29,232 bases of DNA, taken from a virus. The notes beneath the pieces were generated by a model. It was not told where the DNA came from. It did not search any database and saw nothing but the letters and a program-made list of their open reading frames with translations. The stretch lies in the IMG/VR virus record IMGVR_UViG_3300025697_000105, positions 1 to 29,232 of that record; one strand, written 5' to 3'. Both the position numbers and the translations under genes were made by a program. Positions within the stretch are counted from its first letter, which is position 1. The number at the start of each line of letters is the position of its first letter. Positions 4,667-28,585 of the stretch are shown here, one piece after another.

Positions 4667-5137
4667 ATGAAAAAGATTAAACTGACAAAAGGTAAATATA
4701 CTTTAGTTGACAATGACGATTACGAGATACTTAACAATTATAAATGGTATGCAAAAAGAGGTACAAACACTTTTTATGCAGCTCGTTCAATCTTAAATAA
4801 AGATGGTAATCAAAAAACTATCAGGATGCACAGATTATTAATGGATGCACCAGATAGTTTAGAAGTTGACCACAAAGATGGGAACGGACTTAATAATCAG
4901 AGGTCTAATATTAGATTGGCTACCAAATCCCAGAACAGGATGAATAGACCTAAACAGTCTAGAAATATATCCGGTTTTAAAGGAGTCTCTTGGGATAAAA
5001 TCCATAGAGCTTGGATAGCTTATATAACATTAGATGGTGTACAAAAAAATCTTGGCTACTTTAAAAGTAAACAAGAGGCATACCAACATCGTTGTAAAGT
5101 AAGTATTGAATATCACAAAGAATTTACTCACAACTAA
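4667..5137 (+). CDS. HNH homing endonuclease with AP2 DNA-binding domain
   Basis: A 156-residue free-standing homing endonuclease of the HNH-AP2 class common in phages. The HNH core is around residues 53-93: His55 in MHRLL, Asp68-His69 in EVDHKDG, Asn74 and Asn77 in NGLNNQRSNIRLAT, with all expected residues present. The AP2 domain follows at about 101-152 (SGFKGVSWDKIHRAWIAYI, then LGYFKSKQEAYQHR). Such enzymes nick or cut near their own insertion site and spread their gene. It starts 4 bases after the scaffold stop and splits the scaffold/decoration/coat cluster, as expected of a mobile insertion. It appears intact. No intron is evident, since both neighbours look complete. Confidence 0.93.
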   Translation: MKKIKLTKGKYTLVDNDDYEILNNYKWYAKRGTNTFYAARSILNKDGNQKTIRMHRLLMDAPDSLEVDHKDGNGLNNQRSNIRLATKSQNRMNRPKQSRNISGFKGVSWDKIHRAWIAYITLDGVQKNLGYFKSKQEAYQHRCKVSIEYHKEFTHN

Positions 5138-7068: not shown

Positions 7069-7356
7069 ATGCCTAGTGGTGTTTATAAAAACAATAAGGG
7101 GAAAACTCTTTCTTCGGCTACTAAAAAGAAAATTAGTAAAAATCATTCAAGGCATAATTTAGGAAAACACCTTTCTATTGAAACCAAGAAAAAGATTAGT
7201 GATTCTAAAAGGGGTGGTAAAATGTCAGAAGAAACAAAGAGAAAGATTTCAGAGGCAAATTCAGGGAAGAAGAATTACAAGTGGATTTCTGACAGAAGCT
7301 TATTGAAAACTGACAGGCTAAAGGGGAAGAGAGAACGAAAAAAGACTTATCCCTAA
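7069..7356 (+). pseudogene. NUMOD3-repeat remnant of a homing endonuclease
   Basis: The 95-residue product is almost entirely NUMOD3-type DNA-binding units: three copies of the S-x-E/A-T-K-K-K-I-S pattern at about residues 13-28, 32-48 and 52-67 (for example LSIETKKKISDSKRGG and MSEETKRKISEANSG). In homing nucleases of the HNH and GIY-YIG classes such repeats flank a nuclease domain, and the tail YKWISDRSLLK is the kind of linker that leads into an HNH core. Here translation stops about 25 residues later, with no H-N-H or GIY-YIG residues. It is probably a truncated nuclease, though a free-standing DNA-binding protein cannot be excluded. It is strongly basic, unlike its neighbours, and starts 8 bases after the upstream stop. 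Confidence 0.75.
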
Positions 7357-7994: not shown

Positions 7995-10043
7995 ATGGCA
8001 TATCTAGCAAATAAATTAGGCGACCCGAATAATTTAGGATGGTTTGCTACACCAGCAGCTCTTAATATTGCCTACCCAGTTGGTGCAGATGGTTATTTTG
8101 CTATGGTAGGTTCAACTGATTCAATATGGACTTGGGACTCAGATACTAGCGCTTGGGTTGATACTAAAACAACTGGACCAATAGGACCAACTGGCCCTAC
8201 AGGTTATACAGGTTACACTGGATATACAGGTTATACTGGAGCTGATTCAACTGTTATTGGTCCTACAGGTTATACAGGAAGCGGTGATACTGGTCCTACT
8301 GGTTATACTGGTTCTCAAGGAGAAACTGGTTATACAGGCTATACAGGAAGTGGTGATACTGGTCCTACTGGATATACTGGACTTCAAGGAGCAACAGGAT
8401 ACACTGGAGATACAGGAGCTGACTCAACAGTAACTGGTCCAACTGGTTACACTGGTCCAACTGGATATACTGGTGATTCAGGAACTGATTCAAATGTTAC
8501 AGGTCCTACTGGTTACACAGGTTCAACTGGATATACAGGTTATACTGGGCTAGCAGGAGCTGGCATTGATTGGAAAGGTACTTGGGAAATTGGAACAAAT
8601 TATGTTATTGATACTGGTGTTTATGATGCAGTTGCTTGGGAAGGTAATTCTTATATAACAAATATTGATGATAATATAGGTAACGAACCACCAGATGCTA
8701 CTTGGGATTTATGGGTAGCACAAGGTCCAACTGGTTATACAGGTCCAACTGGTTACACTGGTCCAACTGGTTACACTGGTCCAACTGGTTACACTGGCCC
8801 AACTGGTTATACAGGTGATTCTGGTACTGACTCTAATGTAACAGGATACACTGGTTATACTGGCTTCACAGGTTACACTGGTTATACTGGTTATACAGGT
8901 CCAGATGGTGGAACAGGACAATTTGGTGGTTACTCCGCTAAATGGAATTTTGATACCAGTACAGCAGCTGAAACAACTGATGATCCTGGAACTGGAGATA
9001 TAAGATTTAATAGCGCGACATCTTCAAGTGTTACAGAAATGGTTATTAGTCAGACTGATGCTGATAGTAATAATATGCAAGAGTTTCTACTTTCTTTAGT
9101 CGGTGCTGGAGCAGCAGAACCTGATTATGGATTTATAAAATTCTTTAGTGTTGCTACTCCTAATACTAAATTCTGGAATGGAAAAATTACTACGGTTGCT
9201 GATCAAGGAGATTATTTTTGGATAGAAGTTACATATATTACTCACGGTGGTGGTGACCCTCCATTTTCGAATGGGGATCCTATTGTTTTAACATTTTCTC
9301 CAAGAGGAGATATTGGTTATACAGGTTACACAGGTCCAATCGGTTCTACTGGCTATACTGGGTATACAGGTGATTCTGGTGCTGATTCAACGGTAACTGG
9401 TCCAACTGGTTATACAGGTTACACAGGCCCAATAGGTCCTACTGGCTACACAGGTGATGATGGAGCGGATTCTACAGTAACTGGTCCTACTGGCTATACT
9501 GGATATACCGGTTTTACAGGGTACACTGGTTATTCAGGAGCTGATTCAACAGTTATTGGTCCAACTGGTTATACTGGTCCAATTGGTCCTACTGGCTATA
9601 CAGGCGATTCTGGAGCTGATTCAACAGTTACTGGCTATACTGGCTATACTGGTTATACGGGTTATACTGGTCCTGAATCAGTGACTCTTACTAATACAGT
9701 TACTCTTACGAATAAAACAATTACAAATAGAGTATTAACATTTACTACGGATGCAACTCCAGAAGTGGATTCAGATGATTATGATGTGGTTACAATAACA
9801 GCACAAGATGCAGCAATTACAGATGTTGATATGGTTGGTACTGCTGAAACTAACTTTCAGAAAATAATATTTAGAATAAAAGATGATGGTACGGCAAGAG
9901 CAATAGCTTGGGGAGATGATTTTGAGGCAAAAGGAGTTGCGTTACCTACTACTACGGTTATAAGCAAGGTTCTTACGGTTGGATTTATTTATGACACTGT
10001 TACTGCAAAATGGGGATGTGTAGCAGTTGCTAATGAAATTTAA
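7995..10043 (+). CDS. Collagen-like tail/head fibre protein
   Basis: A 682-residue modular fibre. Residues 1-60 form an N-terminal anchor domain of the type seen in phage structural proteins ([19 protein letters not shown]). Three Gly-X-Y collagen segments follow at about 61-190, 244-312 and 438-560, dominated by GPT and GYT triplets. Between them are a small aromatic domain (192-240, [15 protein letters not shown]) resembling carbohydrate-binding CBM5/12-like modules, and a beta domain (313-437). Residues 561-682 form a C-terminal knob ([19 protein letters not shown]) of a kind used for trimerisation and receptor binding. It is almost certainly a trimeric surface fibre. The Thr-rich triplets are candidate O-glycosylation sites, relevant to the glycosyltransferase fusion at 12889. 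Confidence 0.85.
8175..8564 (+). repeat. Collagen-like repeat region 1
   Basis: Imperfect 9-bp Gly-X-Thr units encoding about 43 triplets, mainly GPT and GYT, interrupted by short spacers such as GADSTV and GSGD. Synonymous codons for Gly, Pro, Tyr and Thr vary along the array (GGA/GGT, CCA/CCT, ACA/ACT), which keeps DNA identity below protein identity. Confidence 0.9.
8724..8930 (+). repeat. Collagen-like repeat region 2 with near-identical 18-mers
   Basis: Begins with tandem copies of GGTCCAACTGGTTACACT encoding GPTGYT, at least three of them identical, then a more divergent GYT run. The perfect copies suggest recent local expansion, in contrast to the more diverged segments 1 and 3. Confidence 0.9.
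9306..9674 (+). repeat. Collagen-like repeat region 3
   Basis: Gly-X-Y array of about 40 triplets, mostly GYT with GPT and GPI, broken by a recurring spacer G(D/A)SGADSTVTG. The same spacer occurs in region 1, so the higher-order unit is a block of collagen triplets plus spacer, duplicated within the gene. Confidence 0.9.
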
Positions 10044-11240: not shown

Positions 11241-11624
11241 ATGTCTACCAAAGAAGAAGAATTAGAAACTAATGCGGCTTTAAAAGGTCATTTTAAGCCT
11301 AGTCCAGCTACTACAAACTTTATGGAAAAAACCACAGAAGAAATTACTAATATAAAAATAGATATGAAGGGAATGAAAAAAGATATAGGTTTTATTAAAG
11401 AAAGTCTTCAAAAACTTGAAAATAAATTAAGTAAATTTATTGATGAATGTCGGTCATCATTTCCTAATAAGAATGAATTTGATAAGTTTGAAGATGAAAC
11501 GAAAGATAGATTTGAGAAGTTAGAAAAGTTTATAACTAAAGTTATGTGGACCTCTGTTACTGGAGTACTTGGATTCCTTATTTCTATAATTTGGTTTTTA
11601 GTAGAACGCTTTGTTATTAATTAA
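11241..11624 (+). CDS. Coiled-coil protein with C-terminal membrane anchor, holin/XhlA-like candidate
   Basis: A 127-residue protein. Residues 28-100 are helical and heptad-like (TTEEITNIKIDMKGMKKDIG, FIKESLQKLENKLSKF), and a single hydrophobic span lies at about 101-121 (TSVTGVLGFLISIIWFL), near the C-terminus. This topology matches haemolysin XhlA-type proteins that work with holins in phage lysis, but also generic tail-anchored proteins. Immediately downstream are a 46-aa membrane peptide and a candidate cysteine peptidase, which together could form a lysis cassette. No signal peptide is seen. Confidence 0.6.
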   Translation: MSTKEEELETNAALKGHFKPSPATTNFMEKTTEEITNIKIDMKGMKKDIGFIKESLQKLENKLSKFIDECRSSFPNKNEFDKFEDETKDRFEKLEKFITKVMWTSVTGVLGFLISIIWFLVERFVIN

Positions 11625-12888: not shown

Positions 12889-15744
12889 ATGAATAAACCA
12901 AAATTTTCAGTTGCACTCATTGCTAGAAATGAAGCTGTAACTCTTCCACGTCTAATAGGTTCTTTGAAAGAATTTCAAGACCGAGGTGGTGATATATGGG
13001 TACTCGATACAGGTTCAACTGATAACACAGTTGAAGTAGCAAGAGATTTAGGATGTAAAGTAGAAGTTGTTGGAGATAAATTTAGAATAAATATTGATGA
13101 AGATTTAGCCAACAAAATTAACTCAAAATTTATAATTGATGGTGAAGAATCAGCAGTGAAAGCTGGCGATTCTCTTTTTGACTTTGGTTCAGCTAGAAAT
13201 TACATATCTACTTTTCCGGACAATGATATGATTGCTACTCCTGATTGTGATGAGATTTTTACTAGATTTGATATTGATAAGTTAGACGAAGTTATAGGTG
13301 AAGGTTTTGAGCAATTAGAATACGAATTTGTTTTTTCTCACGACTTAGTCGGAAATCCAGTAATCAAATTTAAACATTGTAAATTTTATGATAGAAATAA
13401 AATGAAGTGGGCAGGTGTTATACATGAAGTTTTAAAAGGTTCAGCTAAAAGGATATATTTAGGAGAGGAAATTATTAAACTGGAACATTATCAAAATGTG
13501 AAAACTAATCGTTCTGGTTATCTTAGAGGTCTTGCTCTTGATTGTTATAACAATCCAGAGAACGATCGTAATTCTCATTACTTTGCTAGAGAAATGTTTT
13601 ATTTAGGAAGACATAAATCTGCAATAAAAGAATTTAAAAATCATATTTCAATGGGTAGATGGGGGACTGAAGCCGCACAATCGATGCTTTATATTGGTGA
13701 TTGTTATAAGAAGCTAGGTGAAATTGACGAAATGTTAAAATGGTATAGCAAGTCAGTGGAGAAAGAAGTGAGAAGAGAACCACTTATGCGTTTAGCTGAA
13801 TATTATTTTAGTAAAGAAATGTATCCGCAGGTAATAGCTTATTGTGAAGCAGCTTTATCTGTTACACAGTTACCTTTTTATTCGAATCATCAACCTTACT
13901 ACGAACATACGCCACATGAATTATTATATATTTCATATTGGTGGGTTAATAAAAAAGAGAAAAGCAAAGAGCATTATTTTAAAGCTTTAGCTTTTTTCCC
14001 TACTAATCCAAGATATATTTCTGATGGTAAATTTTATAATATTCCCACAAAATTAGATACTTATACAAAAAATATAAAAGATAATATTAATTTTTCATTT
14101 GTAAAAAGAGGTGATGGTGAAATAGCTTGTATGTCAGGGGAAACTGGAACTAATTGTGATGGTCACGATTACTCAGAAAAATTAGGAACTACATTAAAAG
14201 AATCATTTGAATTTTTAAAAGATAAAGCTGATATTGTAGAATGGACTGACCAAGTTAATTATAATATTTTACTTCATCGTAAAGATAATAATTTAGAAAA
14301 GTTAAAGGATTTCTGGATGGCGGTTAAAGAATCACCAAGAAGAAAAATCTTTATTGGGCCAGAACGGTTGTCTCAAGTTTGTGATTTGATTGGAGCATCT
14401 CAAATTATAGTCCCATTGGTTAATGCCTTTGAGACTATTGATAGTATTAATTTAGATATACAGGATGGAAATATACTTATATTTAGTTGTGGTATGCCGG
14501 CAAAAGTTTTGATTGCTATGGCGTTAACACAAAATAATAACATTACTTGTATTGATGCTGGTAGTTCTTTTGACCCAATGTTTATTGGTAAAACTAGAAC
14601 TGAGCAGGTTGACAAGGAAACATTAAGACGATTATATTTATACAGGCCAACACAAGATGAACTCGCAGTAAAGTTTAATATTCCTCAAGATTTACATCCA
14701 GAAAAAATGTATAAATTAAATCATATAACTGACAATGATAAAGTTATATATGATTTAGGTTGTTCAACATTTAAAACTTTAGATAGAGCTATTGGTGTAG
14801 ATATTGAGCAGAAAGAAGGCGTTGATATTGTTTCCAGTGTTGATGATTTACAAATGATAGAAGACAATTCAGTTGATGTTATTTTAGCAAGTCATGTATT
14901 AGAACATATGGAAGATACTAATAAAACTCTTTGTGAATGGAGACGTATATTAAAAGAAGATGGAAAAATAATTATAATACTTCCGGATGATGAATTTATT
15001 GATACTCTAAATCCTATGCTTAGTGGAGGTTGTCACAAGCAAGTTTTCACTAGAGATTCTTTGAAACAAATAATAGAAAGTATTCCTGGATTAGAAGTTG
15101 AAAAACTAGAAACTATAATGGAAAAATGGAGTTTTGGCGGGATCATTAGAAAACGAAGCTCTAAAATGCCTGTAGTTTCGTTTGTAATACCTACACTGGG
15201 TAGAGAGGAAGGCTTAATACGATGTTTAGAATCGATAGAAAATCTAAATTATCCAATTGATAAAATTGAAGTTATTGTAAAGCAGGACAGTTTTGAAGAT
15301 AGAACTGGCGTCCCAAAACTTCTAAAGCAAGGAGTAGAGGAGTCAACTGGTGAATGGATTGTGTTTGCTTCTAACGATGTTAAGTTTTCACCAGAGTCAA
15401 TTAATGAGGCTTTAGCCGTAGGTGAATTAGGCTATGTTGCTTTCAATACTGGGGAAGTTATACCGGACGAAGGAAATATTAATGAACATTTTATGATTAG
15501 GAAAGATATAATTGAAAAAATTGGTGAAGTTTTTGATACTGATTTTCATCATTGCGGTTGTGATAATTTACTTTGGGCTAAAATGAAAAAGTTAGGGATT
15601 GCTAAAAGAGCTGACAGAGCAATTGTTAATCATTATCATTGGACTAAAAATTCTGATAAATCTATGGATGAAACATATAAGTTAGGATGGTCTAAGGTCG
15701 TGGAGGATCGAGCGTTATTAGCTAAAAAATTAAAAGAATTATAA
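12889..15744 (+). CDS. Multidomain glycosyltransferase-methyltransferase fusion
   Basis: A 951-residue enzyme with at least five units. Residues 4-220: GT2-type GT-A fold with ARNE (12-15), DTGSTDNT (40-47) and a DxD-like Asp119-Cys-Asp121 that would bind metal and nucleotide sugar. Residues about 225-370: TPR-like helical repeats. Residues about 395-580: a domain with RGDGE (407-411) and IFIGP (487-491), the signature style of GT-D/DUF1792 glycosyltransferases. Residues about 600-740: class I SAM methyltransferase with YDLGCS (621-626) and HVLEHM (669-674), type 11-like. Residues 760-951: a second GT2 domain (VVSFVIPTLGREEG; SNDVKF). All motifs look intact. Lying between two collagen-like fibre genes, it probably builds a decorated glycan on virion proteins; host-surface modification is the alternative. 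Confidence 0.85.
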   Translation: MNKPKFSVALIARNEAVTLPRLIGSLKEFQDRGGDIWVLDTGSTDNTVEVARDLGCKVEVVGDKFRINIDEDLANKINSKFIIDGEESAVKAGDSLFDFGSARNYISTFPDNDMIATPDCDEIFTRFDIDKLDEVIGEGFEQLEYEFVFSHDLVGNPVIKFKHCKFYDRNKMKWAGVIHEVLKGSAKRIYLGEEIIKLEHYQNVKTNRSGYLRGLALDCYNNPENDRNSHYFAREMFYLGRHKSAIKEFKNHISMGRWGTEAAQSMLYIGDCYKKLGEIDEMLKWYSKSVEKEVRREPLMRLAEYYFSKEMYPQVIAYCEAALSVTQLPFYSNHQPYYEHTPHELLYISYWWVNKKEKSKEHYFKALAFFPTNPRYISDGKFYNIPTKLDTYTKNIKDNINFSFVKRGDGEIACMSGETGTNCDGHDYSEKLGTTLKESFEFLKDKADIVEWTDQVNYNILLHRKDNNLEKLKDFWMAVKESPRRKIFIGPERLSQVCDLIGASQIIVPLVNAFETIDSINLDIQDGNILIFSCGMPAKVLIAMALTQNNNITCIDAGSSFDPMFIGKTRTEQVDKETLRRLYLYRPTQDELAVKFNIPQDLHPEKMYKLNHITDNDKVIYDLGCSTFKTLDRAIGVDIEQKEGVDIVSSVDDLQMIEDNSVDVILASHVLEHMEDTNKTLCEWRRILKEDGKIIIILPDDEFIDTLNPMLSGGCHKQVFTRDSLKQIIESIPGLEVEKLETIMEKWSFGGIIRKRSSKMPVVSFVIPTLGREEGLIRCLESIENLNYPIDKIEVIVKQDSFEDRTGVPKLLKQGVEESTGEWIVFASNDVKFSPESINEALAVGELGYVAFNTGEVIPDEGNINEHFMIRKDIIEKIGEVFDTDFHHCGCDNLLWAKMKKLGIAKRADRAIVNHYHWTKNSDKSMDETYKLGWSKVVEDRALLAKKLKEL

Positions 15745-15988: not shown

Positions 15989-17380
15989 ATGTACCCTCAA
16001 ATAAAAATTATAAACAATATAGGGAACACTATTGATATTCCAAATGAGTTGGATGTTAAAGCTTCTACTTATTTGAGTAGCAATATTGTTGCTGGAGTGT
16101 TAGCCGTCCCTGCGGATAACACAGTTGATTTTACCTCTACTGCATCAACTTTATTGTTGTTATCGTCAGTAGGTGCTGAAAATGCTGAAATAGTAACTTC
16201 AGCTTCACACACTGCGCAATCATTTGTAACTTTAGCTACAGTAATGGCTCATAATCGCGGTGATGTTATTAGTGAATTGAAATGGGATCAAATAGTTGTA
16301 TCAAAAAGCGCGACAATTGATGGAGTTTATGTTGTTTTCGCTACTCAAACTATTTTTACTACACAGCAAAAAACTACTATATATGACATAACTGGTCTAG
16401 GTACTGATTATTACAAGATTCAGTGGAAAAATTCGCTTACCGGATTACTTTCAGATTTTTCTACTGCTATAAGCGTTGATGCTTATCCAACAAATTCAGT
16501 TTCTTCTGTTATCTATCCAGTGTTGAAAGCAATGGGAGTAAGTGAAGAAGATAAAAGAATTACAATTCCATTTTGTATAGCAGCTATCAATGATGCAAGA
16601 AAATTTACTCACGCTAAACTTTATGGTATTCGTCATGCCTGGCAACAAAAGTTTGAATATCCAATTAAAATATTAGCTGGAAGTAACTATGTTGACTTGC
16701 CTACCGATATAGATTTTATAGAAACGGACAGGTCTGTTTTAGCTGCTAGATTTTTGGTTGATAATATATTAACACCATTTAATTTGAGATATATCGATAA
16801 ACGTTCCTGGAATCAGATTGCATTTTCAACAACCGGAGGAACAACTTCAGAGGTTACTTTAACCGGAGCTGTATCGATTACATTTGATAGTGTGGGAGAT
16901 TTTCCTGACAGTGCCTCGGGTGTGGCATATGTTGCAACGACAGCTTATACGCAGGATATTGAAGAAATAGCGTACACCTCTATAGATTTAACAACAAATC
17001 AACTTTTAGGAGTAACAGGAATAACTCGTGATATCCCGTCTGGGACTAGGGTTTGGTCGAGACCCACAATTTCACAGCCTATCTACTATACTGTTTTTGA
17101 TGACAAATTGTATTTTGATCGAATAGTTCCTGATTCAATGCAGGGGAATAACCTCTATATTGATTACTACAAAAAAATTGATGAAGTTGTAAGTCTTTCT
17201 GTGGAGCTTCCAGAGCATTACAGAGAAATTTATAAATGGTATCTACGTTATGCTATCAAGTATCGTAAAGATACTTCACTTGATAGTAAGGATCCTGATT
17301 TGAAGAAATTCGAGGATTTGGTGCAAGCCTTATTTAACAATCTTTATACCGGACAAGATACTACAATTATTACAAGTTAA
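15989..17380 (+). CDS. Head-to-tail adaptor protein candidate
   Basis: A 463-residue virion protein. The first 90 residues are beta-rich, followed at about 95-165 by a fibronectin-III/Ig-like segment ([33 protein letters not shown]). From about 171 a helical stretch ([20 protein letters not shown]) and the C-terminal helices ([20 protein letters not shown]) resemble the adaptor proteins that bind under the portal in podoviruses (P22 gp4 / T7 gp11-like). The order adaptor, then gp10-like hub supports the call. It has its own promoter. The Ig-like insertion would protrude from the neck and may bind the cell surface. Confidence 0.6.
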
Positions 17381-17390
17381 AAATAAAATT

Positions 17391-18365
17391 ATGGCATTTA
17401 TTAATCCGCTGATTCCTTTAGTTGATATTCAACAACAGGAACAGCCTGACAATACAAGTTCATATCAGTTAGTTACCTTTGGTACCGTAACTGGTGGAAC
17501 ACCTTACGCTGGTGCGACATATGCAAATGTTTTTGCATTAGAGTGCATACTTCAAGATTTAGATGGTTCAGCTGTTTACCAAATGACAGGCACAGTTGCA
17601 GTCCCAGCATGGACAGCAATTGGTGCTGGTGCTGCTGGTTCAACTGGCTACACTGGTCCAACTGGTTATACTGGTCCAACTGGTTATACTGGTCCAACTG
17701 GTGACACAGGTTACACAGGTTACACAGGTGCAGGCGATACAGGTCCAACTGGTTACACAGGTCCTGTAGGAGCTACTTCAGCTACTGGTGCAACAGGTGA
17801 CACTGGTGACACAGGTTACACTGGTTTTACTGGTGATACTGGTTACACAGGTCCTGATGGCCCTACTGGCTACACTGGCTACACTGGTCCAATTGGGCCT
17901 CAAGGTGTTACTGGCTATACTGGTTTTACTGGATATACTGGCTATACAGGCCCTACTGGTTATACTGGTGACGATGGAGCTGCTTCAGCTACTGGTGCAA
18001 CAGGATATACTGGTTATACTGGTCCTACTGGTTATACTGGTCCTACTGGCTATACTGGTTATTCAGGAGCTGATTCTTCTGTTACTGGCTATACTGGTCC
18101 TACTGGATATACTGGTCCTACTGGAATTACTACAGTTGTAAACGAAATTGTTACAACAACTGGTGGTGGCGCTACTGAAAATCTTTCAGCTGGTGACTTC
18201 GCTAGTGTTGCTGCTACTGATACAGTTTTTGCTACTTTAGTTAACAACGGTGGAAATAATGTTTCCATTCTATCAGTTGAAGCTAATATCGGTTCTGTTG
18301 ATATTACTTTCTCTGGCGATCCTTCAAGCGATACAATTCTAAATGTGTTGGTTCTTACTCCGTAA
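17391..18365 (+). CDS. Second collagen-like fibre protein
   Basis: A 324-residue modular protein. Residues 1-82 are an N-terminal domain ([20 protein letters not shown]) different from that of the 7995 fibre. Residues about 83-245 are Gly-X-Y collagen, again mostly GPT and GYT, including three near-identical 18-bp units at its start. Residues 246-324 are a small beta C-terminal domain ([19 protein letters not shown]) that could trimerise the stalk. It lies between the adaptor and the hub genes, so it may be a neck or collar whisker. Shared triplet style with the 7995 gene suggests both are made and perhaps modified together. Confidence 0.82.
17636..18127 (+). repeat. Collagen-like repeat region of the second fibre
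   Basis: About 54 Gly-X-Y triplets with tandem GGTCCAACTGGTTATACT at the beginning and more diverged codons later. Spacers [10 protein letters not shown] and GADSSVTG resemble those in the 7995 gene, so cassettes may have moved between the two genes by recombination. Confidence 0.9.
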
Positions 18366-23923: not shown

Positions 23924-26900
23924 ATGTCTAATAGATATAACTCAATAGTAGATACTAAAGGAAGATACAATGCGGTTTCTCCAGAGGAGACTGCTGTAGT
24001 TAAGCCTGTAAAAAAAGTAGTTACTCCACAGCCAGCACCAATAGCACCAACTCCCAAGCCTATTCAAGCTCCTCGTGAACAAACAATGGCTGAGAAGTAC
24101 GGGCTTCCAGAATCTACTATCTCACAAGCTAAACCACAGGTGCAGGAAAAACCTAGCATTTGGAACCGAGTAGCAAAAACTCTTCTACCTAAAAGGGCAG
24201 AGGATTACTTTGGTTTGAATGACTCACAAATTCAAAAGGATATAAAAACATCTGAAGACGCTAAGCAGTATGAATTTGCTGGAGGAAGGTCAATTACCAG
24301 CGGGCTCATTGATAGCCTTACTGACTGGGATTCAAAAGATGTGCCATTTTATGGATCCGGTAAAGAAGCTGTTGAGTCTGTAGGGTTAGCGCAGTCAGCA
24401 AGAAGATTTGAAAAAGGTGAGCAAAAACCTGGTGATGTTAGTAAGTTGCAAGAGTACTATAAAAATAATGAAAAAGAAGCAAAGTTACAAAGGAATACTG
24501 GATATGCAGCAGGTGAAACGATAAAGAATTCTGTTAGATTTATGGGCGAGCTACTTCCGGTAGCACTATCAGAAATTTTAACTGGCAGCGTGGCACCAAC
24601 TGGTGACGCTTGGGTTTTAGCGCAAGCTTCCAAGATTGGTGTTAAAGAGACATTAAAAAAATATGCTGAGGATAAAGCTTTTAGAACAGCTCTTACAACA
24701 GCAGTAAAAAATAAAGCTAAAGTCGAAGCGGCCACAGTTGCAAAGCAGTTTGGGCTTACAGCTCCTACTAATATAACTGACAAGTCGGCTGAAAGAATGA
24801 TAGGCCAATATGATTTTGAAACAGGAAAAATTATAGAGCCAGGACAACCTATAGGTGAGGCTATTGTTAATGGAGTTTCTCAGCATGCAGTTGAATTACT
24901 TTCAGAAAGAACTGGTGGAATAACTGGGAAGCTTATTGGTAAGATGGCTACACCAGTTAAAAACGTAGCAGTAAAATCTTCTATATATAATGCACTTAAA
25001 AAAAGACTGCCTTCAGCTTCTAACTCTCAACTTACAGCTCTCTTAAAGAAGTCCGGTTGGAATGGTGTCATCGGAGAGTTCTTTGAGGAAAGAGACGCTG
25101 ATGCTTTAAACCAATTATTATTCTCTGTGGGGTTAGGTGATCAAGAATTTCAAGGACTTACTATAGAGCAGATAGCTACTGAGCTTATCGCTTTCTCTGT
25201 GATGGGTGGTGGTATTAGTGCTGGAGTTGGAGTGTATAATAAAACGGCTGATAAGATAGCAAATAAGCAAGTAACCAAAAAAAATATACAAGGTGAAGAA
25301 AATGCTATTACTCAGGAACCTTCAAAGGAGTCTGGTGTATTTTATTCTGGTGCAAAAGGACACGTAGTCGAAACTTCTTTGAATATTGATAAAGCAAAAG
25401 TAGCTACGATAAAGGGTGATCAAAGGGGATTAACTAATAGTAGTTCCTATGTTGAAGCTGATCAGAAATTATTTGATAAATATTCATCTGATTATGATTT
25501 TGTAAAAATAGAACATCCAGAGATGTCTAATAAGGCTGATGAATATTATAATTTAAAAGAGAGAAAATGGTATAGTCAAGATAAAGATGTAGCTGAAGTT
25601 TATGCAATGCAAAAACGTGAAGGTAAATATGAAATAAAAAAAGAAATTCCTACTAATACAGGTCCCGGCTATCAGGACCTTAGCAGGTCTATCGATAAAA
25701 TGGTTGAGAGTGGAACATTCTATCCAGAAGAAGCTACTATTCTTAAAACATTATTCGAAGGGACTAATGATAAATTGCTAAGTCAAATAAAATATACTGA
25801 AAATTCACGTTTTTCAAGAACACTAGGCAGATTTAGAACCCGGCAAAAAAAATCTACTGGAGAGATAGTCCCAGGAAGTCCTGATATTCAGATGCAAACA
25901 GGGTTAGCTAAAAAAGACTACACTCAATCTAGTAGAACTTTTGTTCACGAGTTTGGACACGCAGGATGGCATCTAATTTTAACACAGGAAGAAAGAAATC
26001 TTGTTACAAAAGTATTTAATGAAACATCTAAAGCTAAACGCACACAGCTTTTTAGCAACCTTGGTGGTAATGTTAACTACTATGCCGAAAATGAACATGA
26101 ATTTTTTGCTCAGGCTTTTTCTGATTATGTATTTGAAAATAAAGTTCCAGCCCCTCAAATGAAAGCATTGTTTAAGAGAATTACTGGAGAACTTTGGAGA
26201 CGTTTAAAAAACTTAGTAACTAGAGGCGAAGTTAAAGCTGTAAAAACGATGAGTCCTGTATTTGAAAAGATTTTAGCTGGAGATACCTCTACTCCTCTTA
26301 CGGAATTTTATAAAAAAGAACCCCCTAGCTTCAAGAAAAAACTACAAGAAATATTTGATGATCTTGCTCCAGAGGCTAAGAGATTGCAAGGAGCACAATC
26401 ACAAACTGTGGTTCCAGGTAAGAGTTTATTTTCTGGTGGAATGCCAGAGTTAGAAAAAACAGCTGAAGGATTAAGAGATCTTAAAAATAATATAGAAAAT
26501 ATTTCAGACAAAAAGCTAGAGGTTCTATATGACTTCACTGCAAACTTTGCTAAGGGGAATGACCATATGGAGAATACTCCAGAATATGCTGAAATGATAA
26601 AGCGAGGATATAAACCTATCGACCCTAACAATTTGAGGAGGGGATTTGACATGAAAAAAGAAACAACCCCAGAACCTACCCCAGAGCAACCAGTACAAGA
26701 TGTTTTCGATTCTCCGGTTGGAAATTCACCAATGGAGACGGTAGCTGATACCTTTAAAACTACTACTGAAAGTCTTCCACCGGATATTGCATCCACTATC
26801 GAGCCGATAGAGAAAGTAATGACTGAAGATGGCACTCCACTAGCTCAACAGGTGGGTGCGCTTGATTATATTCGAACGCCATGGAGAGTGTTTGAAAAGA

Positions 26901-28585
26901 TGGGGCTTAGACCAGCATATCAAAAACTTCTAGCTGGCTACGAAGCTTATATGAAAGAGTTACCAACTAATATTGATAAAATTACAGCTTGGTCGAAACG
27001 AGTTTCGAAAGAAAGCAACGAAAGAATTTTCGAATATTTAGACGGTGAGTCTATAGAATTGAATACGAATGAAGCTCAAGTTGCTAATGAGATTAAAGCA
27101 TGGATGGCACAGTGGGCTGATAGACTTGGCATGTCACCAGACGCGCGCATCACTGATTATATTACTCACATATTCCCTAAAGGAAAAGGTGGGGAAATTC
27201 CAGAAGAAATTGCTTACATGATTAGGGGTAAAATTCCTGGAAGTGTTTATAATCCTTTTTTGCTTGAAAGGCTTGGCGCTGAAGGTTATATCAAAGATAC
27301 TTGGAGAGCTTTGGATGCTTACACTAAACGGGCCACTCGTAAAGTTAATATGGACCCAGGTCTTGCAGAAATAAAAGAAGCAAGTGATAAATTAACACAT
27401 GACACCCAAATAGATTACATAAATAATTACGTTAGTAAAATAAATCTACGACCAAATAGGATTGATAAGATGATTGATACATCTATAAAACAACTTGTAG
27501 GATACAAGTTTGGAGCTAGACCAACTGCAGAAATTACAAGATCTCTTCGTATGATGATTGCCAGGGCTAAGATTGGATTTTCAGCTATTTCTTTTGCTAA
27601 AAATATTACACAGGGAGTAAATACATTAGCTGAACTATCAGCGAAATACACCACCATCGGCTACATAGACCTAGTAAAATATGGAGGAAAAGAATTGGAA
27701 GCAGAAGGTGTACTAATTGCTCCATTCATTGAGGATAGAAAATACAGCGCAGTAAAAGGTGCAATTGAGAAAGTTGATAAAGTGTTATTTGTAAACATGA
27801 ACGCTTCCGAGCTTGTGAATCGTGGAGCAGCTTACTACGGAGCAAAGGCGAAGTTTGTAGCTGGAAAAATAAAGCCACATGAATACAAGAAAGCATTTGG
27901 TAAAGAAATGCCAAAAGATTATAATCCAACGATGAAAGATGCAATTGATTACGGTAAGTTTGTAGCTGCTAAAACTCAATTTAAGTTTGGTGCGCTAGAT
28001 ACTCCGGTGGCTATGAATAGTGATTTAATGAAATTGATATTTCAATTTCAGACATTCTCACTTAAACAGGCAGAATTTATTACTCAAATGGCCAAGGACA
28101 AGGAGTATGCTAAACTTGTTAGATACACAACTGCCTCAACAATGCTCTTTCAAATTATAGGTAGCGCTTTTGGCATGAGTTGGGAAGACGCAATTAAACC
28201 TTGGAGATTCGGCTTGCCACCAGCGTTGCAATTCTTTTTAGATTTATTTGAGAAGGGAATTGTTGGAAAAGATAAATACGGAAATATATTAGACACAGAA
28301 GAAAAAGTAAAAGCAACAGCTGACACACTACTTACTAATGTTGTTCCTGGAGGCGTTCAGGCGAAGAGAACTTTTGAAGGGCTTGGAGTTGTAAACGAGG
28401 GAGCGGCCAGAACTAAGAGTGGCAACTTTAAACATAAAGTAGAACAGACACCATCAAATTATGTTAGAGGATCACTATTCGGTAAATATAATCTTCCAGA
28501 AAGTAAAGCTTACTACAAAAAGAAGGATGACAAAGCGAAAGGTAAAAGTAACTCATCAAGATCAAACAGATATAACGGTTTATAG
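23924..28585 (+). CDS. Giant internal/ejection-type protein with HEFGH metallopeptidase site
   Basis: A 1553-residue protein starting directly at the upstream stop. Residues 1-180 are Pro/Lys/Gln-rich. Hydrophobic segments at about 205-230, 420-440 and 1400-1423 may interact with membrane. At 675-679 HEFGH is a zinc metallopeptidase signature, with a likely third ligand Glu726 in EHEFFAQAFSDYV (E-x-x-A-x-x-F), a gluzincin-like arrangement. A region at about 470-575 (VFYSGAKGHVVE ... KWYSQDKDVAEVYA) faintly resembles an ADP-ribosyltransferase-like module, uncertain. The C-terminal third (THIFPKGKGGEIPEE; TQFKFGALDTPVAMNSDLMK at 1351) resembles large polyvalent protein-associated regions. Probably an ejected multi-function protein that processes host targets or opens the envelope. 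Stop is TAG. Confidence 0.7.
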   Translation: MSNRYNSIVDTKGRYNAVSPEETAVVKPVKKVVTPQPAPIAPTPKPIQAPREQTMAEKYGLPESTISQAKPQVQEKPSIWNRVAKTLLPKRAEDYFGLNDSQIQKDIKTSEDAKQYEFAGGRSITSGLIDSLTDWDSKDVPFYGSGKEAVESVGLAQSARRFEKGEQKPGDVSKLQEYYKNNEKEAKLQRNTGYAAGETIKNSVRFMGELLPVALSEILTGSVAPTGDAWVLAQASKIGVKETLKKYAEDKAFRTALTTAVKNKAKVEAATVAKQFGLTAPTNITDKSAERMIGQYDFETGKIIEPGQPIGEAIVNGVSQHAVELLSERTGGITGKLIGKMATPVKNVAVKSSIYNALKKRLPSASNSQLTALLKKSGWNGVIGEFFEERDADALNQLLFSVGLGDQEFQGLTIEQIATELIAFSVMGGGISAGVGVYNKTADKIANKQVTKKNIQGEENAITQEPSKESGVFYSGAKGHVVETSLNIDKAKVATIKGDQRGLTNSSSYVEADQKLFDKYSSDYDFVKIEHPEMSNKADEYYNLKERKWYSQDKDVAEVYAMQKREGKYEIKKEIPTNTGPGYQDLSRSIDKMVESGTFYPEEATILKTLFEGTNDKLLSQIKYTENSRFSRTLGRFRTRQKKSTGEIVPGSPDIQMQTGLAKKDYTQSSRTFVHEFGHAGWHLILTQEERNLVTKVFNETSKAKRTQLFSNLGGNVNYYAENEHEFFAQAFSDYVFENKVPAPQMKALFKRITGELWRRLKNLVTRGEVKAVKTMSPVFEKILAGDTSTPLTEFYKKEPPSFKKKLQEIFDDLAPEAKRLQGAQSQTVVPGKSLFSGGMPELEKTAEGLRDLKNNIENISDKKLEVLYDFTANFAKGNDHMENTPEYAEMIKRGYKPIDPNNLRRGFDMKKETTPEPTPEQPVQDVFDSPVGNSPMETVADTFKTTTESLPPDIASTIEPIEKVMTEDGTPLAQQVGALDYIRTPWRVFEKMGLRPAYQKLLAGYEAYMKELPTNIDKITAWSKRVSKESNERIFEYLDGESIELNTNEAQVANEIKAWMAQWADRLGMSPDARITDYITHIFPKGKGGEIPEEIAYMIRGKIPGSVYNPFLLERLGAEGYIKDTWRALDAYTKRATRKVNMDPGLAEIKEASDKLTHDTQIDYINNYVSKINLRPNRIDKMIDTSIKQLVGYKFGARPTAEITRSLRMMIARAKIGFSAISFAKNITQGVNTLAELSAKYTTIGYIDLVKYGGKELEAEGVLIAPFIEDRKYSAVKGAIEKVDKVLFVNMNASELVNRGAAYYGAKAKFVAGKIKPHEYKKAFGKEMPKDYNPTMKDAIDYGKFVAAKTQFKFGALDTPVAMNSDLMKLIFQFQTFSLKQAEFITQMAKDKEYAKLVRYTTASTMLFQIIGSAFGMSWEDAIKPWRFGLPPALQFFLDLFEKGIVGKDKYGNILDTEEKVKATADTLLTNVVPGGVQAKRTFEGLGVVNEGAARTKSGNFKHKVEQTPSNYVRGSLFGKYNLPESKAYYKKKDDKAKGKSNSSRSNRYNGL

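What the first reader, a model, noticed from the sequence alone, without database searches (positions are those of the whole stretch)
12889..15744. Phage-encoded GT2-TPR-GT-D-methyltransferase-GT2 fusion
One 951-residue reading frame carries two GT2 domains (DTGSTDNT and DCD; VVSFVIPTLGREEG), a TPR-like region, a domain with RGDGE and IFIGP typical of GT-D/DUF1792, and a SAM methyltransferase (YDLGCS, HVLEHM). GT-D enzymes are known from bacterial adhesin (serine-rich repeat protein) glycosylation, not as a usual phage structural-operon gene. Three sugar-transfer domains plus a methyl-capping enzyme in one chain suggests an ordered trisaccharide assembly line.
Basis: partly seen in the sequence, partly recalled or inferred. 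Interest (0 to 1): 0.78.

Follow-up and report, generated by a model that had tools for sequence, protein, structure and literature searches.

The report
Swappable phage protein-sugar-coating enzyme
A bacterial virus makes one long protein that appears to add two or three sugars and a methyl cap to proteins of its own particle, probably its collagen-like fibres, and related viruses swap the middle of this enzyme for other sugar- or methyl-adding parts.

Summary
The 951-aa frame (12889-15744) is real and has the five segments described: GT2, TPR, a GT-D (DUF1792) domain, a class I methyltransferase and a second GT2. Single-sequence Pfam hits to GT-D are below cut-off, but a profile of 12 relatives finds the dGT1 structures 4PHR/4PFX (E=2e-7), and the predicted fold's only significant PDB matches are those two entries. 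All four segments tested are under purifying selection. (1) The GT2-TPR head resembles polypeptide glycosyltransferases: SunS/ThuS and GmaR by fold and profile, and C. difficile SgtA, which glycosylates collagen-repeat threonines, by architecture only. (2) In about 25 lineages of one uncultured phage group the head and tail GT2 are constant while the middle is swapped or absent, in a pattern that is not one clade of heads. (3) The gene lies between genes for collagen-like Gly-X-Thr proteins; three independent losses of the tail GT2 coincide with near-loss of the downstream collagen shaft. Best reading: a modular O-glycosyltransferase that starts, extends and methyl-caps glycans on virion proteins, most likely the collagen-like fibres. 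Chemistry and substrate are inferred. It is a new variant of known kinds (SgtA, dGT1, PBCV-1 A064R).

The parts
12889..15744 (+). 951-aa GT2-TPR-GT-D-methyltransferase-GT2 protein
12889..13563 (+). head GT2 domain (residues 1-225), DxD = D119-C-D121, invariant in 24 aligned heads
   Evidence: SunS/ThuS/GmaR by fold and profile
13564..14052 (+). TPR region of the head (residues 226-388)
14053..14658 (+). GT-D (DUF1792-fold) domain (residues 389-590), invariant GDGE (408-411) and D-x-G-S-x-x-D-P
14671..15159 (+). class I SAM methyltransferase domain (residues 595-757)
14053..15159 (+). GT-D + methyltransferase cassette: absent, replaced or extended in relatives; nucleotide identity to L003 jumps from 80-85% to 100% at about residue 375-395, its upstream edge
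15166..15741 (+). tail GT2 domain (residues 760-951)
7995..10043 (+). collagen-like fibre protein, 89 GXY triplets, 62 with Thr at Y (candidate substrate)
17391..18365 (+). collagen-like fibre protein, 43 GXY triplets, 34 with Thr at Y (candidate substrate)
15989..17380 (+). SU10-type adaptor protein, next gene downstream
11241..11624 (+). small protein with a weak hemolysin (phrog_937) match and a C-terminal hydrophobic stretch, possibly a holin
   Evidence: sequence

Best explanation
The protein is a modular, soluble, multi-step protein glycosyltransferase of a tailed phage. The GT2-TPR head puts a first sugar on Ser/Thr of a phage virion protein, most likely the Thr-rich Gly-X-Thr repeats of the neighbouring collagen-like fibre proteins. 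The middle is a cassette that related phages gain, lose and exchange, so the enzyme family encodes a variable glycan coat on a constant scaffold. Shown: domains, folds, purifying selection, cassette variation, and co-location and partial co-variation with Thr-rich collagen. Inferred: catalytic activity, sugar identities, order, the acceptor protein and the biological role (fibre stabilisation, or masking/receptor interaction).
For: Head: best Foldseek hits are SunS/ThuS peptide S-glycosyltransferases (7msp E=5e-13, TMt 0.62, about 324 columns), with GmaR also hit; the profile hits GmaR 5e-13 and SunS 2e-8. SgtA (GT2 + TPR, gene immediately upstream of bclA3) puts beta-O-GlcNAc on Thr of collagen repeats (PMC7157674). 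GT-D; in dGT1 the DUF1792 domain and the second GT act successively on a protein-bound glycan (PMC5063993). Purifying selection on all four segments tested. Cassette swaps: none, GT-D+MT, GT-D+MT24+MT, GT2+MT, MT only, MT24+GT-D+Gly_transf_sug; GT-D-bearing heads are not one clade (5 changes, AU p=1e-4). Collagen: 71% Thr at Y over 1712 triplets. Head-only enzymes have 0-8 downstream triplets against at least 12 in all others, in 3 of 3 independent pairs. Two distant phages with head homologues carry Thr-Y collagen nearby: the L055 contig (GYT, 45/67) and DSL-LC01 (22/34, 26/42). Longest hydrophobic 19-mer 1.9 (Kyte-Doolittle), so no clear membrane anchor.
Against: No activity, donor or glycan is known. 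The collagen correlation is post hoc, rests on three tail losses (sign test p=0.25; 4e-4 only if rows are treated as independent), and one of them (L027) runs off its contig end and keeps an upstream collagen protein. L031 (12 triplets), L025 (14) and L036 (15) come close to the head-only values. PaBG, Lu11 and others also encode head homologues; collagen was not seen in the PaBG stretch inspected. SgtA itself was not compared by sequence. Glycosylation was ruled out for recombinant E. coli prophage collagens (PMC3368898), although those lack Tyr and are not Thr-dominated. The whole-protein AF2 model has low confidence in the middle (pTM 0.43).
Confidence: 0.55

Rival explanations
1. Same chemistry (stepwise protein O-glycosylation with methyl cap), but the acceptor is another virion protein such as capsid or tail, not the collagen-like fibres.
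For: Mycobacteriophages Che8 and Rita have glycans on capsid proteins (as reported in PMC11256854 and PMC11652166). The gene sits in a structural region next to the SU10-type adaptor. Head homologues occur in phages where no collagen gene was seen near the gene (PaBG).
Against: Thr-Y collagen recurs beside the head in three distant phage groups; collagen shaft and tail GT2 co-vary.
Confidence: 0.2
2. The enzyme modifies a host surface glycan or host protein (receptor masking, superinfection exclusion).
For: Phage glycosyltransferases often act this way (own knowledge; also proposed for freshwater phages in PMC10202952). The tail GT2 profile hits glycan-building GT2 enzymes such as 9jma, annotated as GalNAc(5)-diNAcBac-PP-undecaprenol beta-1,3-glucosyltransferase.
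Against: No membrane segment; head resembles direct polypeptide glycosyltransferases; gene lies among structural and lysis genes rather than in an early or accessory region.
Confidence: 0.15
3. The enzyme glycosylates modified phage DNA bases.
For: GT2-like enzymes can glycosylate modified bases in phages (own knowledge; a related claim is cited in PMC10202952).
Against: TPR-bearing polypeptide-GT head, location in the structural region, and no base-modification gene identified in the window.
Confidence: 0.05
4. The GT-D or methyltransferase segments are decayed passengers without activity.
For: Single-sequence matches to GT-D models are below curated cut-offs.
Against: pN/pS 0.26-0.29 (GT-D) and 0.20-0.36 (MT), in the same range as the other segments; GDGE and D-x-G-S-x-x-D-P invariant in 12 sequences.
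Confidence: 0.05

Closest known systems
C. difficile SgtA (GT2-TPR O-GlcNAc transferase of the collagen-like spore protein BclA3)
   Same: GT2 followed by TPR in about 360-390 aa; gene close to a collagen-like protein with Thr at the Y position
   Different: Stand-alone initiating enzyme; no GT-D, methyltransferase or second GT fused; bacterial spore, not virion. Not compared by sequence here.
SunS/ThuS (SPbeta-type peptide S-glycosyltransferases) and GmaR/flagellin glycosyltransferases
   Same: Best structural and profile matches of the head; act directly on polypeptide
   Different: Single-step enzymes; SunS/ThuS act on Cys in bacteriocins; no cassette
dGT1 (DUF1792/GT-D + CgT) of Streptococcus serine-rich repeat protein glycosylation
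   Same: GT-D fold; two glycosyltransferase domains in one chain adding successive sugars to a protein-bound glycan
   Different: No initiating GT2-TPR head, no methyltransferase; bacterial adhesin
Chlorovirus PBCV-1 A064R (GT-GT-methyltransferase)
   Same: One viral chain with two glycosyltransferases and a methyltransferase that builds and methyl-caps the end of a capsid glycan
   Different: Eukaryotic virus, N-glycan, different GT families, does not start the glycan
Mycobacteriophage Che8/Rita virion glycosylation
   Same: Phage-encoded glycosyltransferases and glycosylated virion proteins
   Different: No single-chain cassette enzyme or collagen-like target reported in the papers read here
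Mimivirus L230 (collagen hydroxylase/glucosyltransferase)
   Same: Multi-domain viral enzyme that glycosylates viral collagen-like proteins
   Different: Acts on hydroxylysine; unrelated second domain

Membership tests
GT-D (DUF1792) fold glycosyltransferases | GT-D fold | tested here: met
   AF2 model pLDDT 86; only significant PDB matches are 4phr/4pfx
GT-D (DUF1792) fold glycosyltransferases | Sequence profile similarity to DUF1792 | tested here: met
   Profile A5 hits 4PHR/4PFX E=2.2e-7 and 5V4A E=7e-4; 10 of 12 members match PF22882, best 6e-6
GT-D (DUF1792) fold glycosyltransferases | Curated Pfam/NCBIfam cut-off for the single window sequence | tested here: not met
   15-17 bits against 27 (Pfam); 13-20 bits against 75-291 (NCBIfam): a divergent GT-D-fold domain, not a member of the curated SRRP equivalog
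GT-D (DUF1792) fold glycosyltransferases | Sugar transfer from a nucleotide donor | not testable with these tools
   needs enzyme assay
GT2-TPR polypeptide glycosyltransferases (SunS, GmaR, SgtA type) | GT2 domain with conserved DxD followed by TPR | tested here: met
GT2-TPR polypeptide glycosyltransferases (SunS, GmaR, SgtA type) | Structural similarity to a solved polypeptide glycosyltransferase | tested here: met
   7msp E=5e-13, TMt 0.62; GmaR 7x9r E=4.5e-7; profile hits. SgtA sequence itself not compared
GT2-TPR polypeptide glycosyltransferases (SunS, GmaR, SgtA type) | Transfer of sugar to a peptide | not testable with these tools
   inferred only
Class I SAM methyltransferase (Methyltransf_11) | Score above Pfam cut-off | tested here: met
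   42-45 bits against 21.2
Viral GT-GT-methyltransferase glycan assembly enzymes (A064R type) | Homology of GT domains to A064R | not tested
   functional analogy only, from PMC9614988

The most novel reading that the evidence does not exclude
A phage group diversifies the glycan on its collagen-like fibres by swapping enzyme cassettes inside a single multi-domain glycosyltransferase, so that one chain initiates, extends and methyl-caps O-glycans on phage collagen and the cassette content sets the virion's glycan type.
Probability: 0.4. Interest if true: 0.8.

Novelty: new variant of a known kind. Interest (0 to 1): 0.62.

Why it matters
If true, tailed phages decorate collagen-like fibres with methyl-capped O-glycans using one self-contained enzyme, and exchange enzyme cassettes to change that coat. 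Thr at the Y position in place of hydroxyproline, with glycosylation as a known collagen stabiliser (Bann et al. 2000, as cited in PMC3368898), gives a direct reason for the enzyme. It would also offer a soluble single-chain tool for building glycans on collagen-like polymers, and a natural series of enzymes (head only, head+tail, head+cassette+tail) that lets each step be assigned.

Tried and rejected
Search of 84,980 species genomes with the A4 profile found no cellular or prophage relative, so host and cellular origin are unknown. Rfam found no group I intron or other RNA family at gathering threshold in the window, L010, L026, L040, L011 and L039, nor a credible one at relaxed threshold in L010 and L026, so the HNH-containing inserts cannot be called introns. 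tblastn of the adaptor and the 1553-aa protein against named phages gave nothing. The terminase of relative L041's contig is only about 31% identical to Vibrio and other phage terminases, so host is not assigned. A middle-cassette versus downstream collagen length comparison (p=0.04) was not relied on: uncorrected for relatedness. Background frequency of Thr-Y collagens in phages lacking the GT2-TPR head was not measured.

Full report
OBSERVATION. The frame at 12889-15744 is one uninterrupted 951-aa ATG ORF; shuffled copies of the window never gave a stop-free run above 197 codons. The window is an IMG/VR virus record of unknown host. Pfam places GT2 at residues 7-58 and 761-806, TPR around 262-325 and Methyltransf_11 at 647-696; phrog_13126 covers residues 97-377.

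GT-D. Cut out alone, residues 395-581 give only weak matches to PF22882, PF08759 and TIGR03728. A profile of 12 relatives hits 4PHR/4PFX (DUF1792, dGT1) at 2.2e-7. The AF2 model (pLDDT 86) matches only those two entries significantly in the PDB. GDGE and the D-x-G-S-x-x-D-P motif are invariant in the alignment. The GT-D call stands, as a divergent member of the fold. In BFVD the same fold appears in two Homavirus proteins named for GT2-like and methyltransferase domains and in an uncultured Caudovirales protein, so GT-D in viruses, and probably its fusion to such domains, is not unique.

RELATIVES AND MODULARITY. Scans of viral contigs with the protein and with profiles gave 41 loci in one search, about 25 lineages after removing duplicates. 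The head (residues 1-388) and tail GT2 (760-951) are nearly constant; the middle varies: none (580 aa, the commonest form); GT-D+MT (951 aa: window, L002, L007, L008, L009, L010, L014); GT-D+MT with the tail split off behind an HNH-like ORF (L011, L012, L015); GT-D+Methyltransf_24+MT (L026, L039); GT2+MT (L017); MT only (L025); Methyltransf_24+GT-D+Gly_transf_sug (L055/L056, 1211 aa, heads about 50% identical). Three loci have the head alone (L020, L027, L044). On a maximum-likelihood tree of heads the GT-D-bearing rows are not one clade (5 changes; AU p=1e-4), and tail loss occurred three times. Between the window and L003 nucleotide identity rises from 80-85% to 100% at about residue 375-395, the upstream edge of the cassette; L003 begins only about 65 codons upstream, so a chimeric contig end cannot be excluded. 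All segments show pN/pS of 0.17-0.36 against three relatives.

FUNCTION OF THE HEAD. Foldseek of the full model ranks SunS/ThuS first (7msp E=5e-13, TMt 0.62, rmsd about 4 A) and also finds GmaR; the head profile hits GmaR and SunS sequences in the PDB. These enzymes act directly on polypeptide. C. difficile SgtA has the same GT2+TPR plan, lies immediately upstream of bclA3, and adds beta-O-GlcNAc to Thr in the collagen repeats of BclA3 (PMC7157674). SgtA was matched by published architecture, not by sequence.

CONTEXT. The gene is flanked by two collagen-like proteins (7995-10043 and 17391-18365) with Thr at Y in 62/89 and 34/43 triplets; over all non-redundant loci 1213/1712. The next gene is an SU10-type adaptor. 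In relatives the gene between the enzyme and the adaptor, where present, is an M23-like (L004, read from sequence, with phage endolysin matches), amidase (L027) or papain-like (L044) protein. A sister contig carries terminase and portal genes, so this is a tailed phage. Two distant phages with head homologues also carry Thr-Y collagen genes nearby: the 127.8-kb L055 contig, about 4.7 kb upstream, and Actinomycetia phage DSL-LC01, a few genes upstream. EHEC prophage collagens, by contrast, favour GPK/GPQ/GPA and lack Tyr (PMC3368898).

CO-VARIATION. In the downstream collagen-like protein, head-only loci have 0 (L027, cut at its contig end), 7 and 8 triplets; all tail-bearing loci have 12-56 (with L002, L023, L028 to L030, L036 and L041 taken). 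Three of three independent pairs agree; the sign test cannot go below 0.25 with three pairs, and the exact separation of 4e-4 ignores relatedness and was noticed after the fact. This is suggestive, not proof.

MECHANISM. The proposed order is head on Thr/Ser, then GT-D and tail GT2 extending the glycan, then methyl capping. Precedents are dGT1, whose two domains act in succession on Fap1 (PMC5063993), and PBCV-1 A064R, whose two GTs and methyltransferase finish a capsid glycan (PMC9614988). Order, donors and acceptor are inference.

VERDICT. It is a new variant that combines known kinds in a swappable single-chain enzyme, with a concrete testable substrate.

Noticed in passing
L010:510-958 and L026:4900-5372: Inserts at about residue 183-190 of the head GT2 (L010's with an HNH-like ORF at 597-968) split the gene at nearly the same site in two relatives; no Rfam intron match.
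   Followed up: partly
L011:5342-5920 (also L012, L015, L026:7663-8247): HNH-like ORF, read by eye and without a Pfam match, sits between the methyltransferase and the tail GT2, leaving the tail as a separate ORF.
   Followed up: partly
window 4667-5137 and 7069-7356: HNH endonuclease and NUMOD3 ORFs: homing endonucleases also lie elsewhere in the window.
   Followed up: no
window 23924-28585: 1553-aa protein with weak, sub-cut-off LPD14 and ATLF-like matches; probably a large polyvalent or ejected phage protein.
   Followed up: no
L004:5022-5648, L027:7136-7735, L044:3351-4220, L026:8825-9817: The gene after the glycosyltransferase is a different lysis or peptidase type in different relatives (M23-like, amidase, papain-like, PG-binding).
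   Followed up: partly
L059:6343-7914 (phage DSL-LC01): A gene annotated tryptophan halogenase lies next to the head homologue and close to two Thr-rich collagen genes; a possible further modifier.
   Followed up: no
L063:13032-13598: Stand-alone methyltransferase, Methyltransf_24-like by eye, in a sister phage, resembling the middle module of L026/L039; a possible cassette source.
   Followed up: no
L018:80-1875: Head and tail GT2 are two adjacent ORFs, possibly a frameshift or natural split.
   Followed up: no
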